From contig CANDGI010000009.1 of assembly GCA_947384285.1 (NCBI GenBank), forward strand, positions 41,041 to 105,040: a DNA stretch of 64,000 nucleotides. Reading direction: 5' to 3'. The notes below the pieces were generated by a model. It saw nothing but the letters and a program-made list of their open reading frames with translations, did not search any database and was not told the origin of the DNA. Position 1 is the first letter of the stretch, and every line of letters starts with the position of its first letter. The stretch comes from an uncultured Lachnospiraceae bacterium. GTDB lineage: Bacteria; Bacillota; Clostridia; Lachnospirales; Lachnospiraceae. This document shows positions 3,421-52,292 of the stretch, piece by piece. A program made the position numbers and the translations under genes.

Positions 3421-5092
3421 GAAAACAAGTTCTGCTCTCCTGACGGGAAAAGAGCCGGAGGTGCCAAAAGGCCTGTGGATTAAATGCGACGCCTGCGGAG
3501 AGCTTCTCTATAAGGAGGATGTGAAGCAGAATCATTATGTATGCTACAAATGCGGGAAATATTTCCGCATTACCACAAAGAAGCGTTTGCGGATGGTCAT
3601 GGATAAAGGCTCTTACGAGAAGTGGGAGGAAGGGATGGAATGTAAAGATCCCTTGGGTTATCCAGAGTATCAGGAGAAAACAAAGGCTTTGCAGGAAAAG
3701 CTTGGGATAGACGAGGCTGTCACCTGCGGCAAGGGCACAATCCACGGGGAACCTGCGGTGGTCTGCGTCTGTGACGGCAGGTTCCTGATGGGAAGCATGG
3801 GCTATATCGTGGGAGAGAAAATCACAAGGGCAGTAGAGCGGGCCACCCGTGAAAAGCTTCCAGTGATTATCTTTACCTGTTCCGGCGGCGCAAGAATGCA
3901 GGAGGGCATGGTTTCCCTGATGCAGATGGCAAAAACCTCGGCAGCCTTAAAACGCCATTCCAATGCGGGGCTTTTATACATTTCCGTGCTGACAGACCCT
4001 ACCACCGGAGGCGTAACCGCCAGCTTTGCTATGCTTGGGGACATTATTCTGGCAGAGCCAGGGGCGTTGGTGGGATTTGCAGGACCCAGGGTCATCGAGC
4101 AGACCATACGCCAGAAGCTGCCGGAGGGCTTTCAGAGGGCGGAGTTTTTGCTGGAGCATGGGTTAATCGACAATGTTGTGGAACGGGAGGATTTAAAGGA
4201 AACCCTTGCAAAATTGATTGCCATGCATAACCAGGTGGAGCCGAAGGAGGCTTTGATTCCCAACCGGAGGAAAAACTCTGCCAGGCTGGAAGAGAGAAAA
4301 AGCAAAGAACAGGTATCTGCCTGGGAGAGGGTGCAGCGTGCCAGGGACAAAGACCGTCCTGGGGCTTTGGAATATATCCAGGAGATTTTCACGGATTTTA
4401 CCGAACTTCACGGAGACCGCCACTTTGCGGATGACGGGGCAATTGCAGGCGGTATTGGGTATCTGGATGGATGCCCGGTTACGGTCATTGGACAGCAGAA
4501 GGGAAAGACCACCAAGGAGAACATTACCAGGAATTTTGGCATGCCTTCCCCGGAAGGCTACCGGAAAGCACTGCGTTTGATGAAGCAGGCGCAGAAGTTC
4601 CACCGCCCTATTATCTGTTTTGTAGATACGCCGGGAGCATTCTGCGGCATGGAAGCGGAAGAGAGGGGGCAGGGAGAGGCCATCGCCAGAAATCTTTTTG
4701 AAATGTCGGATTTGACGGTGCCTGTTTTGAGCATAGTCATTGGCGAAGGCGGCAGCGGCGGAGCACTTGCACTGGCTGTCGGAAATGAAGTGTGGATGAT
4801 GGAGAATGCCACCTATACGATTTTATCCCCGGAGGGCTTTGCATCTATTATGTGGAAGGATGCCTCCAAGGCCCCGGAAGCGGCAGAGCAGATGGGGGTG
4901 ACAGCCCAGGAGTTAAAGGAGCTTGGGCTGATTGAGAAGATTATCCCGGAAGCTCAGCCAGCCAATCCAAAAAATCTTGCGAAAATAGCAGGAATTATGC
5001 AAGAAGAAATCCGCAGGTTCCTCCATAAATACCTGCCGTTGGATGGCCAGCAATTGGCGCAGCAGCGGTATGAGCGTTTTCGGAATATGTAG
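3407..5092 (+). CDS. accDA: Acetyl-CoA carboxylase carboxyltransferase, AccD-AccA fusion
   Basis: Transfers the carboxyl group from carboxybiotin to acetyl-CoA. The 561-residue chain contains both subunits that are separate in E. coli. Residues about 20-290 are AccD (beta): a zinc ribbon with Cys27, Cys30, Cys46 and Cys49, then the crotonase core with [10 protein letters not shown] and [14 protein letters not shown]. Residues about 300-561 are AccA (alpha): [52 protein letters not shown] and [11 protein letters not shown]. There is no stop or frameshift between the halves. Start ATG 3407 lies inside the end of accC. A few Clostridia are known to carry such a fusion; that this one is active is inferred from intact motifs. 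Confidence 0.94.
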
Positions 5093-5105
5093 GCAGGAAG
5101 AAAGT

Positions 5106-5145
5106 CAGGCGCTTGCCAGGAATCTGCCAGAAATAGAAGCGCCTG
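5106..5145 (+). other. Intergenic hairpin between accDA and the FabK-like gene
   Basis: The arms at 5106-5114 (CAGGCGCTT) and 5137-5145 (AAGCGCCTG) are a perfect 9-bp inverted repeat with a 22-base loop. No T-run follows, so it is not an ordinary terminator. It could be an mRNA processing or stability element that separates the last gene from the fab/acc message. Confidence 0.45.
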
Positions 5146-5175
5146 GTACATACAGGCAGAAAGGTGGAGAAGCTA

Positions 5176-17882: not shown

Positions 17883-18194
17883 ATGGATATATCAGTATTG
17901 AGCAGCGTTGGGTCACAGTACATTAAGAATGCGGCAATGGAAAATGACCAGCTTACAGTCAAGGATAAAGGGTTTGACAGTTTGCTTCAGTCAGCAATGG
18001 GCATGGTGAACGAAGCCAGTGATTTGCAGAACAAGGCAGAAGAAGCGGAAGTCCAGTTTATGCTGGGGTATGCCACGAATACCCATGATTTGAATGCAAT
18101 ACAGGAAAAAGCAGATATTGCTTTGAATTATACGATAGCAGTCAGGGACAAAATGATTGAAGCATATAAAGAGATTATGAATATGCAGATTTAA
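17883..18194 (+). CDS. fliE: Flagellar hook-basal body complex protein FliE
   Basis: Adaptor between the MS ring (FliF) and the rod. At 103 residues it fits the family; the C-terminal half (LQNKAEEAEVQFMLG, NAIQEKADIALNYTIAVRDK, MIEAYKEIMNMQI) is characteristic. SD GGGAGG precedes ATG 17883. Two hairpins follow before fliF. Confidence 0.95.
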   Translation: MDISVLSSVGSQYIKNAAMENDQLTVKDKGFDSLLQSAMGMVNEASDLQNKAEEAEVQFMLGYATNTHDLNAIQEKADIALNYTIAVRDKMIEAYKEIMNMQI

Positions 18195-18216
18195 TGGGAA
18201 ATGGCCATCTTTCCAG

Positions 18217-18275
18217 GCCTGCCGCCTGGCAGGCTTTTGGCCGTCCATGCTTATGGAAGCCGAAGGCTTTCATAA
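18217..18275 (+). other. Two hairpins in the fliE-fliF spacer
   Basis: The first is a 7-bp stem (GCCTGCC at 18217-18223 with GGCAGGC at 18228-18234) followed by TTTT, a weak terminator or attenuator. The second is an 11-bp stem with a three-base loop (18251-18261 with 18265-18275, one G-T pair). Full termination is unlikely because the operon continues; partial attenuation or mRNA processing between rod and ring genes is possible. Confidence 0.5.
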
Positions 18276-18310
18276 TTTAAGTTGTTTAGAACGGGATGGG
18301 TGAAGGTTAT

Positions 18311-21760: not shown

Positions 21761-23065
21761 GTGACATATAATTTGGATAAATATTATCAGCTAGCAGATA
21801 AAAATTATTACAGACATTTAGGGAAAGTAGTAAAAATTGTAGGACTTACCATTGAATCTGTGGGACCCAACGCAAAACTAAGTGACTTGTGCCGTATTAT
21901 TGTTGATAAGAACAGAAACATTTCCATTATGGCAGAAGTAGTGGGATTCCGGGACAAAAGACTGCTTCTTATGCCTTATGAGAGTGTGGAGGGACTGGGC
22001 GTAGGATGTATCGTAGAGAATACGGGACATCCTTTGTCTGTTTATGTAGGCGAAGAAATGCTTGGGCATACCTTGGACGGCATGGGAAGGCCTACCGATA
22101 TTGAGGAGCTGGCATTGCGGGAGGAGTATCCGGTGGATGCAGCCCCCCCTGACCCTATGGAACGGGTCATTATCAGTGATGTGCTTCCCCTGGGGGTAAA
22201 GGCGGTAGACGGCCTGATTACCGTCGGAAAAGGACAGAGGATTGGCATTTTTGCCGGGTCTGGCGTTGGGAAGAGTACGCTCCTTGGAATGTTTGCCAGG
22301 AATACCAGGGCAGATATCAATGTCATCGCATTGATCGGGGAGCGGGGCAGAGAAGTGCGTGAATTTATCGAACGGGATATGGGAGAGGAAGGAATGCGCC
22401 GCTCTGTTGTGATTGTGGCAACTTCCGACCGCCCGGCTCTTTTGCGGCGCAACGCAGCAAAAACCGCTACGGCTATCGCAGAGTATTTCAGGGATCAGGG
22501 CAAGGATGTGCTGTTGATGATGGATTCCCTGACGCGTTTTTCCATGGCGCAGCGGGAAATCGGCCTTGCGTCCGGGGAACCTCCGGTGACCAGAGGATAT
22601 CCCCCAAGCGTATATTCCGAGATGCCAAAGCTTTTAGAGCGTGCGGGCAACTCTGACAAGGGTTCCATTACGGGATTATATACGGTGCTGGTAGACGGAG
22701 ATGATTTTAATGAACCTATTACAGATACTGCACGAAGCATCCTGGATGGGCATATTATGTTAGATAGGAAGCTGGCTCACAAGAACCATTATCCAGCCAT
22801 TGATGTATTGCAGAGTATTTCCCGTGTTATGAGTTCCATTGCAGACAGCAAGCATAAAGAGGCGGCCGGGAAATTGAAGAATGTAATGGCAACCTATCAG
22901 GAAGCGGAAGATTTGATTAATATTGGCGCCTACAAGGCAGGATCCAACAAAAATATAGATTACGCAGTTGAGAAGATAGATGCGGTAAATGAATTTTTAC
23001 TGCAGGAAACCCATGATAAATTTTCCTTTGAGGAAATCATGGAGATGCTGGAAGGGCTGTTTTAA
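21761..23065 (+). CDS. fliI: Flagellar type III export ATPase FliI
   Basis: Hexameric F1-like ATPase that powers export of rod, hook and filament proteins. The 434-residue chain has Walker A GIFAGSGVGKST (about 161-172), GERGREVREFIERD, Walker B VLLMMDSLTRFSMAQREIG and GYPPSVYSEMPKLLERAG. GTG 21761 is the start. The last codons (MLEGLF, stop) are repeated downstream in the spacer before fliJ; see the repeat entry. Confidence 0.98.
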   Translation: MTYNLDKYYQLADKNYYRHLGKVVKIVGLTIESVGPNAKLSDLCRIIVDKNRNISIMAEVVGFRDKRLLLMPYESVEGLGVGCIVENTGHPLSVYVGEEMLGHTLDGMGRPTDIEELALREEYPVDAAPPDPMERVIISDVLPLGVKAVDGLITVGKGQRIGIFAGSGVGKSTLLGMFARNTRADINVIALIGERGREVREFIERDMGEEGMRRSVVIVATSDRPALLRRNAAKTATAIAEYFRDQGKDVLLMMDSLTRFSMAQREIGLASGEPPVTRGYPPSVYSEMPKLLERAGNSDKGSITGLYTVLVDGDDFNEPITDTARSILDGHIMLDRKLAHKNHYPAIDVLQSISRVMSSIADSKHKEAAGKLKNVMATYQEAEDLINIGAYKAGSNKNIDYAVEKIDAVNEFLLQETHDKFSFEEIMEMLEGLF

Positions 23066-23173
23066 GTGAAAGCGAAGCTTCCTGTAGAACATGAGAAAAT
23101 GCTGGAAGGGCTGTTTTAAGCGATAGCAAAGCTTTCAGGAGAATGAGAAGATAAGCAGAAGGGCTGTTTTAAG
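23045..23173 (+). repeat. Tandem copies of the fliI 3' end
   Basis: The 16-mer gaagggctgttttaag, which ends fliI, occurs at 23051, 23105 and 23158 (periods 54 and 53). Copies one and two share 22 identical bases from atgctgg and then diverge, with the following AGCnAAGCTT still shared. The first unit after the fliI stop is an open 17-codon frame beginning GTG directly at the stop and ending again in MLEGLF. The third copy abuts the fliJ ATG, with GAAGGG available as its SD. Confidence 0.9.
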
Positions 23174-23175
23174 TT

Positions 23176-48770: not shown

Positions 48771-48782
48771 GTGGTTGATGCT

Positions 48783-50384
48783 ATGGAGAGCAAGAATGGA
48801 TATTTTAAGCTGGATATAAGAGGTGGAGATGTATTCCTTTTGATCTATCCGCCCCAGGCAGGAGGAAAGGCGGTAGAGTATAAAGAGGTCACAACATACC
48901 TGGATGGGAAAGGGTATAGTGTGCCTGATGTAAGGGAATTAGGCGATGCATTGACTGTTACAGAAGGAGTCCAGGAAATTTGTGTGGGCACATGGAATGG
49001 AATTTGTGAAAATGAGCAGATGGTAGTGACAATATCCATTGATAAAATGCTGGTATTTTGCCGTTTTTATCCTCCATCAAATAATGGAAAGCTGATGACG
49101 GAAGAGGAAATCTGCGGAGATTTGGCATTTCAAAAGGTTTCTGTCGGAATCCAGCAAGCTGAAATTCAGAAGTTTTTGAATGACCGCCATTATTGCACGA
49201 ATTATATTATGGCAAAAGGAATTCCGCCTATCAATGGAAAGGATGCCAAAATTGAATATTTTTTCAATACAAACCATAATCTGAAACCGAAGAAAAATGA
49301 GGACGGGTCTGTAAACTATCATGAGCTGAATACCATCAGCCGTGTGGAGAAGGGGCAGAAGCTGGCAAAGCTCCATACGGCAGTGCCGGGGAGGCCGGGA
49401 AAGGATGTATTCGGCGGAAGCATCCAGGCAAGGCAGGAGAAAAACTTAAAGCTGGAGTTTGGAAATAATATTACCCTTTCCGAGGATATGACAGAAATCT
49501 ATTCTGATGTCACAGGCCATGCCAGCCTGGTAAACGGCAAAGTCTTTGTGGAAGATGTATTTGAGGTGCCTGCGGATGTAGATACCTCCACAGGGAATAT
49601 TGTCTACGATGGGAATGTGAACATTAAAGGCAATGTAAAAAGCGGTTTTTCGGTGACTGCAAAAGGAGATATCGTTATCGAAGGAGTGGTGGAGGCTGCT
49701 TTTCTTTCCGCTGGCGGACAGATAATTGTAAAGCGCGGCATTCACGGCATGGGAAAGGGAAGGGTCCAGGCAAAGGATAATATTATTACACAGTTTATTG
49801 AGAATGCCACCGTAATTTCAGGCGGATATATTGAGACAGGGTCCATTCTGCATAGCCGGGTGTCAGCAGGGAATGATATCCGTGTAGGCGGAAAAAAGGG
49901 CTTTGTGAACGGCGGCGTCATCCGGGCTGGGAACCTGGTGGAAGCCCAGACCATAGGTTCTGCTATGGGCACTCTCACGAAAATTGAAGTGGGGGTAGAC
50001 CCGGAGATCAAAGAGCGTTACGGGGAACTGCAAAAGAGTATTATCCAGATCAGCAAGGAGCTAGAGCAGCTTCGGCCGATTCTTGTGAATTTTAATGAGA
50101 AGATGCAGAAAAAAGAAGCTTTGAGCGCTGACCGGATACAGCAGGTTCAGACGGTTGCTCGTTCCTTTAAGGAAAAGCAGCAGCTTTTAAATGCCCAAAG
50201 AAAGGAATTGAAAGAGATCCATGAGCAGATTCAAATGTCCCATAATGCGAAAATAAAAGTAAAGGGCAGTATTTACCCAGGTGTTTCTGTGAATATTTCT
50301 GAGGTAAGCATGAATATCAAGACAGAAAGGTCATTCTCGAAGTTTGTGAAAGAAAAGGGAGAAGTGGTCATTCGTTCTTTGTAA
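48783..50384 (+). CDS. FapA/DUF342 family flagellar-associated protein
   Basis: A 533-residue protein of the DUF342/FapA family, named after the polar flagellar assembly protein of Vibrio vulnificus. It has an N-terminal region (about 1-180), a beta-helix-like middle with repeated Gly/Val turns (VDTSTGNIVYDGNVNIKGNV, SAGGQIIVKRGIHGMGKGRV, about 265-400) and a C-terminal coiled coil (about 405-485). ATG 48783 is eight bases after AGGTGG; GTG 48771 is less likely. The last 26 codons are repeated downstream; see the repeat entry. Role in Gram-positive motility is inferred from the operon. Confidence 0.88.
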   Translation: MESKNGYFKLDIRGGDVFLLIYPPQAGGKAVEYKEVTTYLDGKGYSVPDVRELGDALTVTEGVQEICVGTWNGICENEQMVVTISIDKMLVFCRFYPPSNNGKLMTEEEICGDLAFQKVSVGIQQAEIQKFLNDRHYCTNYIMAKGIPPINGKDAKIEYFFNTNHNLKPKKNEDGSVNYHELNTISRVEKGQKLAKLHTAVPGRPGKDVFGGSIQARQEKNLKLEFGNNITLSEDMTEIYSDVTGHASLVNGKVFVEDVFEVPADVDTSTGNIVYDGNVNIKGNVKSGFSVTAKGDIVIEGVVEAAFLSAGGQIIVKRGIHGMGKGRVQAKDNIITQFIENATVISGGYIETGSILHSRVSAGNDIRVGGKKGFVNGGVIRAGNLVEAQTIGSAMGTLTKIEVGVDPEIKERYGELQKSIIQISKELEQLRPILVNFNEKMQKKEALSADRIQQVQTVARSFKEKQQLLNAQRKELKEIHEQIQMSHNAKIKVKGSIYPGVSVNISEVSMNIKTERSFSKFVKEKGEVVIRSL

Positions 50385-50541
50385 GAGCATGAATATCAAA
50401 ACAGAAAGGCTGTTCCCGAAGCTTAGAAAGAAAAGGGAGAAGCAGTTATTCGTTCTTTGTAAGAGCATGAATATCAAAACAGAAAGGCTGTTCCCAAAGC
50501 TTATGAAAGAAAAGGGAGAAGCAGTTATTCGTTCTTTGTAA
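50307..50541 (+). repeat. Three tandem copies of the fapA 3' end, with a 50-codon open frame
   Basis: Copy A (50307-50384) is the real end of the fapA-like gene; copies B (from 50386) and C (from 50464) repeat it including the stop. Periods are 79 and 78. A and C differ at 11 of 78 positions, all transitions; C keeps the reading frame with five amino-acid changes. B and C differ by one base and a one-base deletion, which puts B in frame with C. As a result, ATG 50389, four bases after the fapA stop, opens a 50-codon frame ending at 50541. The SD of the next gene (AAAGGAG) overlaps the end of copy C. Confidence 0.95.
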
Positions 50542-50555
50542 AAGGAGTGTGGAAA

Positions 50556-50870
50556 ATGTCAATCAGACCAGTGGAATTCAGCGGGGTTGTCCAGAGAAGC
50601 CAGGATATAAGCACTGTGAAGCAGAATGAAGACAATAAGTCGGCGCTGCAGCAGCAGAATGTCCAGACACAGTTTGCTAAGGACACCACGCATCATATGC
50701 AGCAGGTTACCCATGCTAATGATTCTGATAATCCCAAGAAGAAGTTTGATGCCCGTGAAAAGGGAAGCAATGAGTATGAGGACCGCCGGAACAGAAAAAA
50801 GAAGGCGGGGGAAAAAAACAGTGGAAAGGTGAGCATTAAAACCACAGGTGGTTTTGATATGAAAATATAG
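50556..50870 (+). CDS. Conserved-type small hydrophilic protein, unknown function
   Basis: A 104-residue, highly charged protein (SIRPVEFSGVVQRSQDIS at the start, then Gln- and Lys/Arg/Glu-rich). The family is not one I can name; the N-terminal RPVEF...VQRSQ(D/E)IS pattern looks like an ordered motif, the rest like a disordered tail. AAGGAG lies nine bases before ATG 50556. It sits between the fapA-like and DUF6115 genes and is followed after 12 bases by the latter. Confidence 0.75.
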   Translation: MSIRPVEFSGVVQRSQDISTVKQNEDNKSALQQQNVQTQFAKDTTHHMQQVTHANDSDNPKKKFDAREKGSNEYEDRRNRKKKAGEKNSGKVSIKTTGGFDMKI

Positions 50871-50882
50871 GTGGGTACAGGT

Positions 50883-51590
50883 ATGACAACAATAGAAATT
50901 ATTTTATTGATAATCGGTGTTGTGATGATGGTTGCAAGTTTTTTTGTTACGGAAAAGTTATCAAACCAGGATTTAGATAAGATTGCTGAATTGAGTACAG
51001 AAGAAATGCAGCGTATTCTGGAGCGAAGCCTGACAGATGCCCAGATAAAAGTAGATAATATGGTGGATCAGGTGATTGACCATTCCATCGAAAAATCCAT
51101 GGAGGTTGTGGAGCGGGCATTGGATAAGGAAACCAATGAGAAGATGCGCGCAATTACGGAATATTCGGATACAGTATTGGAATCTATCCATAAAACCCAT
51201 AATGAAGTGATGTTCCTTTACAGCATGTTGAATGATAAACATTCAGAGCTTACAAAATATGCAGGGAATCTTGCACAGCTGGCAATTCATCTGGAAGAAT
51301 TGCAGGAGAATATCCAGAAAACATTGGAACAATCGGATGATATGATAAGTGCAGCCCAGACGCCAGCGAAGCCGGCAAAAGCGCCAGAGCCGGTTCTGCC
51401 TAAGCCAGAACCGAAGCCGGAGGCTCCAGTCATCCCTCAAAAGGCGGAAGATGAGGCCATAAGCCACAATCAGATGATTCTGAACATGTACCGGAAGGGC
51501 AAAAATGCTGTAGATATTGCAAAAGAGCTAGGACTTGGAGTAGGCGAAGTAAAATTGGTAATCGGACTATTCAGAGAGGAAGATTTATAA
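50883..51590 (+). CDS. DUF6115 protein, SwrB/YlxL-like architecture
   Basis: A 235-residue protein with one N-terminal membrane helix (TIEIILLIIGVVMMVASFFV, about 3-22), a long coiled coil (about 35-155), a Pro/Lys-rich linker (about 160-190) and a C-terminal helix-turn-helix-like module (MILNMYRKGKNAVDIAKELG, LGVGEVKLVIGLF). The same layout and place, behind sigD and before rpsB, is held by SwrB (YlxL) of B. subtilis, which promotes flagellar export-gate activation. The link to SwrB is by architecture and position, not sequence identity. ATG 50883 chosen; an in-frame start at 50871 lacks spacing. Confidence 0.75.
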   Translation: MTTIEIILLIIGVVMMVASFFVTEKLSNQDLDKIAELSTEEMQRILERSLTDAQIKVDNMVDQVIDHSIEKSMEVVERALDKETNEKMRAITEYSDTVLESIHKTHNEVMFLYSMLNDKHSELTKYAGNLAQLAIHLEELQENIQKTLEQSDDMISAAQTPAKPAKAPEPVLPKPEPKPEAPVIPQKAEDEAISHNQMILNMYRKGKNAVDIAKELGLGVGEVKLVIGLFREEDL

Positions 51591-51593
51591 TTT

Positions 51594-52217
51594 ATGAAAC
51601 TGAAATATTATTTGCGTGGATTGGGAGTTGGAGTGATATGTACTGCCATTGTCATGGGAATTGCTTTGTCTGGAAATAAAAAGGAGACGTTAACGGATGC
51701 AGAGGTCATAGAGCGCGCCAGGCTCTTAGGCATGGTAATGGAAGAAGAAAAATCGGATTCCGGGGAGGACGGTTCCCAGCAGAAGGAAAGCGAAAAGGAG
51801 GAGACGCCAGAACAGAATTCCGTCAGCGTAACCCCTGAAAAAGAAAAGCCCCAGGAGAAAGACGCGCAGGAGGACAAGCCTTTAGACGAAGCAGACAAAA
51901 AGGATGAGGAAGCGGACGGCAAGGCAGATGATAAGGAATCAGGCAAGCAGGAGGCCAGCGGCCAGCCGGATTCTGGAAATGCAGTAAGCCAGCCCTCCGG
52001 CAGTAACCAGGATGTAGTGGAAGTGGAAATCAAGGAAGGAGAATATTCTGACGTTATCAGCCAAAAGCTCTTTCAGGCTGGTTTGATTCCAGATGCAGGA
52101 AAATTTAACGCTTACCTGACCCAGAAGGGTGTGGACGATTCCTTACGGATAGGCGTGCATTTGATTCCCACTGGTTCCACGGCAGATGAAATTATAGAGA
52201 TTTTGCAAGGAAAGTAG
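51594..52217 (+). CDS. Membrane-anchored MltG/YceG-like LysM-type domain protein, no catalytic domain
   Basis: A 207-residue protein with an N-terminal membrane anchor (LGVGVICTAIVMGIALSG, about 10-27), a long acidic, Lys/Glu/Asp/Gln-rich spacer (about 50-140) and a C-terminal ~65-residue domain (VEIKEGEYSDVISQKLFQAG, LRIGVHLIPTGSTADEIIEI) that resembles the LysM-like part of MltG transglycosylases. The catalytic MltG domain is absent. It follows the DUF6115 gene by three bases. Binding to peptidoglycan at the cell surface is an inference. Its last codons are repeated downstream. Confidence 0.7.
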   Translation: MKLKYYLRGLGVGVICTAIVMGIALSGNKKETLTDAEVIERARLLGMVMEEEKSDSGEDGSQQKESEKEETPEQNSVSVTPEKEKPQEKDAQEDKPLDEADKKDEEADGKADDKESGKQEASGQPDSGNAVSQPSGSNQDVVEVEIKEGEYSDVISQKLFQAGLIPDAGKFNAYLTQKGVDDSLRIGVHLIPTGSTADEIIEILQGK

Positions 52218-52292
52218 TCGATACCACCGCATCATTTAGGACGGTACGCCGTTCAATAAATTATAGAGATTTTGCGAGGAAAGCAGTCGATA
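52189..52292 (+). repeat. Tandem copy of the MltG-like gene 3' end
   Basis: The 35 bases from 52189 (starting aaattatagagattttgc), which hold the last codons and stop, recur at 52258 with a period of 69 (23 codons, in frame). Within the aligned core the differences seen (a-g, t-c, and c-t in the next bases) are transitions. The stop TAG of the gene reads CAG in the copy. Confidence 0.9.

What the first reader, a model, noticed from the sequence alone, without database searches (positions are those of the whole stretch)
50307..50541. fapA 3' end repeated twice downstream, creating a 50-codon frame after the stop
The last 26 codons plus stop of the fapA-like gene occur three times. Copy C keeps a complete reading frame, differs from the gene copy by 11 transitions and no transversions, and B lost one base so that B and C read as one 50-codon frame from ATG 50389, four bases after the stop. 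A neutral decayed duplication would not be expected to keep a frame or to change only by transitions. Possible meanings: a translated regulatory peptide made by reinitiation, a duplicated RNA signal for the next gene, or recent slippage.
Basis: seen in the sequence. Interest (0 to 1): 0.7.

Follow-up and report, generated by a model that had tools for sequence, protein, structure and literature searches.

The report
Duplicated fapA tail, ordinary tandem repeat
The end of a motility gene was copied twice right behind itself, most likely by a copying slip; similar short tandem copies occur elsewhere in this genome, and the extra reading frame is what chance would often leave.

Summary
Confirmed: the last 25 codons plus stop of fapA (copy A, 50307-50384) recur as B and C up to 50541. 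A and C differ by 11 transitions; B lost one base; B+C read as 50 codons from ATG 50389. The inference against neutrality fails: 0 of 72 single transitions in A make a stop; 66-88% of simulated neutral copies stay open at transition fractions 0.5-0.85, and 35 of 69 single-base losses in B would fuse B and C. C has five residues seen in 0 of 27 congeners; A kept the ancestral ones. None of 27 congeners read (of 28) has the copies; in the nearest, fapA's stop is followed directly by what here follows C. It is not isolated: in 464 kb of this genome 9 of 396 ORFs have a 3'-end echo, against 2 of 1283 in four congeners. Best reading: illegitimate tandem duplication of 79 nt, drift, then a second, homologous duplication. 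A reinitiation relay to the next gene is not excluded but unsupported.

The parts
48771..50384 (+). fapA (flagellar assembly protein A), open frame; its last 78 nt are copy A
   Evidence: Pfam PF03961 E 1e-69 and PF20250 E 1.8e-42; 27 of 28 congeners have a match over nearly the whole length
50307..50384 (+). copy A: functional 3' end of fapA; has the ancestral base at all five sites that G023 and G014 allow to be polarised
50386..50462 (+). copy B, 77 nt, one T lost relative to A and C
50464..50541 (+). copy C, 78 nt; its TAA sits where fapA's own stop sits in G023, directly before the next gene's ribosome-binding site
50389..50541 (+). mechanical 50-codon frame through B and C; no Pfam match at E<=0.001; no Shine-Dalgarno-like sequence seen by eye before its ATG
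50542..50870 (+). AAGGAG (50542-50547) and the next gene (ATG 50556, 104 aa, no Pfam match at E<=0.001)

Best explanation
An ordinary intergenic minisatellite. In this lineage a 79-nt stretch of the fapA tail, from just before an in-frame ATG to just past the stop, was tandemly duplicated by slippage or illegitimate recombination at a 3-nt match (AAG in gaggtAAG|CATG and in tttgtaaAAG|GAG; inferred from the relative's sequence). The upstream copy (A) still closes fapA and stayed under selection; the downstream copy lay in the spacer, was free to drift, and differs by transitions. A second, homologous unequal exchange then doubled it into B and C, and B lost one base. Shown: the copies, their absence in the relatives read, the position of the old junction in G023, the amino-acid changes in C. 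Inferred: the order of events and the slippage step. The 50-codon frame is a by-product of a tandem repeat that contains an ATG and few hidden stops.
For: 0 of 27 congener loci have the echo, scores 8-12 against 56 in the own genome (28 congeners, G008 truncated). In G023 (93% protein identity) the TAA is followed at once by AAGGAGTGTGGAAAATG, the sequence after copy C. A and C share ACA (Thr) where G023 has AGT and G014 AGC, so the duplication followed that change. G023 and G014 agree at 5 of the 11 differing sites; at all 5 A has their base and C the new one, all at first or second codon positions. At all five changed residues C's residue is seen in 0 of 27 congeners. Same kind of event elsewhere: fliI tail (23045-23174), YceG-like tail (52189 on), 9 of 396 ORFs in a 464-kb sample with permuted control 0. 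No stop reachable by one transition; 35 of 69 deletions fuse B and C. No Rfam match at E<=1 for 50000-51000, and no unusual RNA fold (z -1.28; 21 of 200 shuffles fold as well).
Against: Both frames are open and the C stop falls where fapA's stop lies in G023, 14 nt before the next ATG, so a translated relay would look the same. Synonymous changes are somewhat more than expected for random transitions (5.5 of 11 against 24 of 69 possible; P 0.15-0.33), and uncorrected NG86 gives dN 0.10, dS 0.50 for A against C, which taken alone would suggest constraint. The six sites where G023 and G014 disagree cannot be polarised: C agrees with G023 at 12, 30 and 57 and with G014 at 37 and 60. 11 of 11 transitions is improbable (0.002) if the four-fold fraction 0.57 is the right background. 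The genome is an 83%-complete draft; no read data.
Confidence: 0.85

Rival explanations
1. Reinitiation relay: ribosomes finishing fapA restart at ATG 50389 four bases on, translate the 50-codon frame and stop at the ancestral stop position, delivering them to the next gene; the echo thus preserves translational coupling across the longer spacer. The peptide itself need not matter.
For: Stop-to-start distance 4 nt, C stop to next ATG 14 nt. In reporters about 20 nt of spacer nearly abolished coupling (abstract of PMC10666635), and the last 15 nt of an upstream E. coli gene sufficed for it (one section read).
Against: Any tandem copy of a gene tail that holds an ATG gives this geometry. The next gene has its own AAGGAG, and in 12 of 27 congeners the script put the next start 30-99 nt after fapA's stop (at least one, L014, is mis-placed and really farther off by the sequence), without an echo. 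Echo offsets in this genome, worked out by hand, are a mix of multiples and non-multiples of three.
Confidence: 0.08
2. A functional regulatory peptide encoded by 50389-50541.
For: Open frame of 50 codons.
Against: No Pfam match at E<=0.001, no echo in 27 congeners, no Shine-Dalgarno seen by eye, the latter part of B read out of the fapA frame, frame often left by chance.
Confidence: 0.02
3. Assembly artefact: strain variants or repeat ends laid end to end by the assembler.
For: Draft assembly (74 contigs, 83% complete); 5 of 20 sampled contig starts lie in tandem arrays, and the periods of the 32 non-coding arrays stop at 82 nt though 300 was searched.
Against: C carries residues seen in 0 of 27 congeners and B a lost base, unlike an allele of a living strain's fapA; several arrays have three or more copies with shared variants (by eye); six congeners scanned the same way gave 4 non-coding arrays in 337 kb.
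Confidence: 0.05
4. The lineage is or was a mismatch-repair or Pol I flap-nuclease mutator, which made both the duplications and the transitions.
For: 32 non-coding arrays in 464 kb against 3 in 402 kb of G023; copies in the own arrays other than fapA differ by 105 transitions to 19 transversions.
Against: mutS, mutL and the PolA 5' nuclease domain are present in open frames without stops; the own branch shows no transition excess at four-fold sites, 115 to 106, against 299 to 132 on the G023 branch. Presence of a frame does not prove activity.
Confidence: 0.05

Closest known systems
Bacterial intergenic minisatellites / VNTR loci
   Same: Head-to-tail units over 20 nt, several copies, spacer position, copies near-identical (B/C) or drifting (A). 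PMC2884548 (passages seen) searched for units of at least 20 bp, repeated at least twice, at least 90% identity.
   Different: The unit is the tail of the upstream gene with its stop; A and C are 67 of 78 alike (86%). Length variation between strains not seen, as one genome per species is held.
MIRU of mycobacteria (senX3-regX3 spacer repeats; recalled, no paper read for it)
   Same: Tandem units of about 77 nt between operon genes, with small frames whose ends lie near the neighbours' stop and start (recalled).
   Different: MIRUs are dispersed over the genome (recalled); the fapA unit was found at this locus only in the held, incomplete genome.
Termination-reinitiation gene pairs (PMC10666635: abstract and one section read)
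   Same: Very short stop-to-start distance.
   Different: No evidence that the downstream frame is translated.

Membership tests
Intergenic minisatellite | two or more head-to-tail units of at least 20 nt, about 90% alike | tested here: met
   3.0 copies, period 78, 91% matches; A against C alone 67 of 78, below 90%
Intergenic minisatellite | lies where neighbouring genes stay intact | tested here: met
   fapA and the next gene are open and align with relatives; copies B and C lie between them
Intergenic minisatellite | copy number varies between strains | not testable with these tools
   one genome per species; no echo in the 27 congeners read
MIRU-like dispersed repeat | same unit at many loci of the genome | tested here: not met
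   one place at E<=0.001 in the held 83%-complete genome
Translated leader/relay ORF | conserved frame in relatives | tested here: not met
   no echo in 27 of 27 congeners read
Translated leader/relay ORF | ribosome occupancy or peptide | not testable with these tools
   no profiling data held

The most novel reading that the evidence does not exclude
This genome has gone through a burst of short tandem duplications at gene boundaries, with units of about 20-82 nt, at roughly nine times the density of its nearest sampled relative G023, by a process other than loss of MutS, MutL or the Pol I flap nuclease; gene-tail echoes such as fapA's serve as ready-made reinitiation relays that keep neighbouring genes coupled while spacers grow.
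Probability: 0.05. Interest if true: 0.6.

Novelty: new member of a known kind. Interest (0 to 1): 0.22.

Why it matters
The locus itself is ordinary. It shows how easily a tandem copy of a gene tail yields an open frame that looks selected, and it pointed to an excess of short tandem duplications at gene ends in this genome, over four of its congeners, that would be worth measuring in isolates.

Tried and rejected
RNA signal: Rfam at E<=1 gave nothing for 50000-51000 and the fold is ordinary. Templated origin of the changed stretch: the pattern GAAAGGCTGTTCCCRAAGCTTA occurs in the held own genome only in B and C even with 3 mismatches, nowhere in viral contigs and once in genome contigs, in an unrelated gene of a Lachnospiraceae MAG (L058; the tool warns that near records may be left out). 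By my own rough estimate about 0.06 exact hits are expected there for random sequence, so I take it as chance. No match in plasmids. Mutator genes: open frames. Relation to the dispersed 78-nt element: its consensus does not hit fapA. Literature, listings only: searches listed no paper that looked like duplicated gene tails of this kind in bacteria; four of them returned nothing at all and 47 and 54 aimed at MIRUs, so this is weak evidence of absence. One search gave the coupling papers.

A first array scan used a complexity filter that wrongly dropped long units; one search replaces it. One search compared 0 spacers through a wrong program option and was redone. One search ended in an error after the echo counts and the A-C rates; its codon part was redone.

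Full report
What is there. The window holds motility genes; around the finding lie genes with Pfam matches to CheC, CheD, sigma-70 regions, FapA, then a 104-aa gene without match, a DUF6115 gene and a gene with a weak YceG match below that family's cut-off. The end of fapA is followed by two more copies of its last 78 nt. A and C differ by 11 transitions and nothing else; B and C differ by one transition and one lost T in B. The A-to-B period is 79 nt, not a multiple of three; the lost base makes B to C 78 nt, so the frame from ATG 50389 leaves the fapA frame inside B and enters C in the fapA frame, 50 codons in all.

Relatives. A FapA-like match was found in 53 of 61 genomes, own included. 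Of 28 congeners, 27 have a fapA long enough to read its end; G008 is truncated. None of the 27 has an echo: local-alignment scores of the last 120 nt against the next 250 nt are 8-12, against 56 in the own genome. In the nearest, G023, the stop is followed directly by AAGGAGTGTGGAAAATG, the sequence that follows copy C here. So the old junction is at the end of C. A and C share ACA where G023 has AGT and G014 AGC, so the event is younger than that change. A search of the 29 genus genomes with the DNA matched 21; in the other 20 the pieces end by query base 148 or start at 224 or later, so none spans a copy junction; 8 gave no match at that sensitivity. The own genome has one place only (83% complete).

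Selection. G023 and G014 agree at five of the 11 differing sites; at all five A has their base and C the new one, at first or second codon positions. The other six cannot be polarised: C agrees with G023 at sites 12, 30 and 57 and with G014 at 37 and 60, and A agrees with G014 at 12 and 30 and with G023 at 24 and 37. C's five changed residues are each seen in 0 of 27 congeners; position 10 is S or T, position 12 F or Y in all 27. This is the picture of a guarded gene end and an unguarded copy. Against it: 5.5 of 11 changes are synonymous where 24 of 69 possible transitions are (P 0.15-0.33), and NG86 gives dN 0.10 and dS 0.50, so weak constraint is not excluded.

Are the frame and the transitions surprising? 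No codon from the ATG on is one transition from a stop (0 of 72; 12 of 144 transversions are). With 11 random changes the frame stays open in 66%, 70%, 88% and 100% of 20,000 simulated copies at transition fractions 0.5, 0.57, 0.85 and 1. Of 69 single-base losses tried in B, 35 fuse B and C into a frame that reaches the end of C. The transition fraction is 0.57 at four-fold sites between own and G023 (1175 to 890, 51 of 59 ORFs used), 0.63-0.77 in twelve pairs of loci with more than 100 differences (two further pairs had 2 and 0 differences), and 105 of 124 in the other non-coding arrays of the own sample. The chance of 11 of 11 is 0.002 at 0.57, 0.05 at 0.76 and 0.16 at 105/124. The contrast between 105 of 124 and 275 of 360 is itself not clear, P 0.06.

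Not an isolated case. In the same window the fliI tail is echoed in the fliI-fliJ spacer, 110 nt here against 3 nt in G023 and 2 nt in G014, and the YceG-like gene's tail is echoed at 52258-52292. Of 52 spacers compared with two or three of G023, G014 and G024, four are at least 25 nt longer here than in every relative compared: fapA and fliI by tail echoes, 18194-18296 with a dispersed element, and 5092-5164 with an insert that holds an inverted repeat (by eye). Against a general growth of spacers: summed over these spacers own has 3697 nt, G023 4346 (50 spacers), G014 6152, G024 3270.

Wider sample. In 464 kb (window plus the first 20 kb of contigs 1-20), with ORFs of at least 100 aa taken as genes, 9 of 396 have a 3'-end echo and 7 of 382 a 5'-end echo at score 20 or more, permuted controls 0 and 0; in G023, G024, G026 and G014 together 2 of 1283 and 0 of 1249, with one permuted false hit (Fisher P 7e-5 and 4e-5). 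Two arrays (in L093 and L110) count in both own lists, and one 3' hit (L108) is the dispersed element. ORFs were not curated, so a duplication that splits a gene could pass for an echo. A scan for tandem arrays of 20-300 nt period found 32 outside coding interiors in the own sample; G023 1 in 327 kb plus 2 in 75 kb, G024 3 in 400 kb, G026 1 in 400 kb. The small panel: G009 1 in 60 kb, G010 2 in 42 kb, G022 1 in 40 kb, G015 0 in 26 kb, G025 0 in 16 kb, G014 0 in 153 kb. So the excess is about ninefold over G023 but about threefold over the first five of that panel, and G010 comes near on two arrays. The own array periods run 20-82 nt. Six of the 32 involve the dispersed 78-nt element, which is also present in tandem in G025 and G022, so abundance of short arrays is probably not unique to this species. 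The sample starts at contig ends, where arrays gather (5 of 20 starts); G023 was sampled the same way and shows none at its starts. Within the window and its G023 counterpart alone the contrast is small: 3 non-coding arrays in 64 kb against 2 in 75 kb. The Fisher test on arrays (P 1e-6) treats kilobases as units and is crude.

Cause. MutS, MutL and the 5' nuclease domain of Pol I are present without stops, and the own branch has no transition excess, so a simple mutator is unlikely. The breakpoints at fapA share three bases, AAG, if G023's sequence is taken as the ancestor; that fits slippage or illegitimate recombination, an inference.

Could the frame work? Ribosomes ending fapA meet an ATG four bases on, and the frame ends 14 nt before the next start. 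Published reporters show coupling needs such short distances (PMC10666635, abstract and one section). But in 12 of 27 congeners the next start lies 30 nt or more after fapA's stop, so tight spacing is not required in this genus. I give the relay 0.08.

Verdict. Observation right, inference against neutrality wrong: an ordinary drifting tandem duplication. The excess of such events in this genome over four congeners is the part that deserves a second look.

Noticed in passing
window 23045-23174: fliI tail (MLEGLF and stop) echoed in the fliI-fliJ spacer, 110 nt here against 3 nt in G023 and 2 nt in G014.
   Followed up: partly
window 52189-52292; L061 9058-9177: YceG-like gene tail echoed with offset 69 nt here; G023 has an echo of the same gene tail with offset 78 nt, 6 transitions and no transversion. 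One old event or two is open.
   Followed up: partly
window 18217-18274; L096 19037-19193; L108 809-1036; L091 15685-15840: Dispersed ~78-nt element with a TTACTATG/CATAGTAA hairpin, often in tandem at 76-79 nt; 53 matches returned for the own genome, 80 for G025, 45 for G022, present in 14 of 29 genus genomes; not all first-look candidates were scored. The Y1 transposase family PF01797 matches the own genome only as one fragment below the cut-off.
   Followed up: partly
L100 18326-18471; L109 1357-1480: Two arrays with other units (82 and 57 nt) look alike to the eye (...ATGCCTTCYGACG.TTTGCC...), perhaps a second dispersed family (by eye).
   Followed up: no
L094, L097, L103, L109, L110, position 1: 5 of 20 sampled contig starts of this genome lie inside a tandem array, so such repeats may break the assembly and be undercounted.
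   Followed up: no
window 5092-5164: Spacer insert of about 60 nt absent in three relatives, holding an inverted repeat CAGGCGCTT...AAGCGCCTG (by eye).
   Followed up: no
L014, L016, L018 downstream of fapA: Some congeners carry hairpin-like inverted repeats in the fapA spacer (by eye).
   Followed up: no
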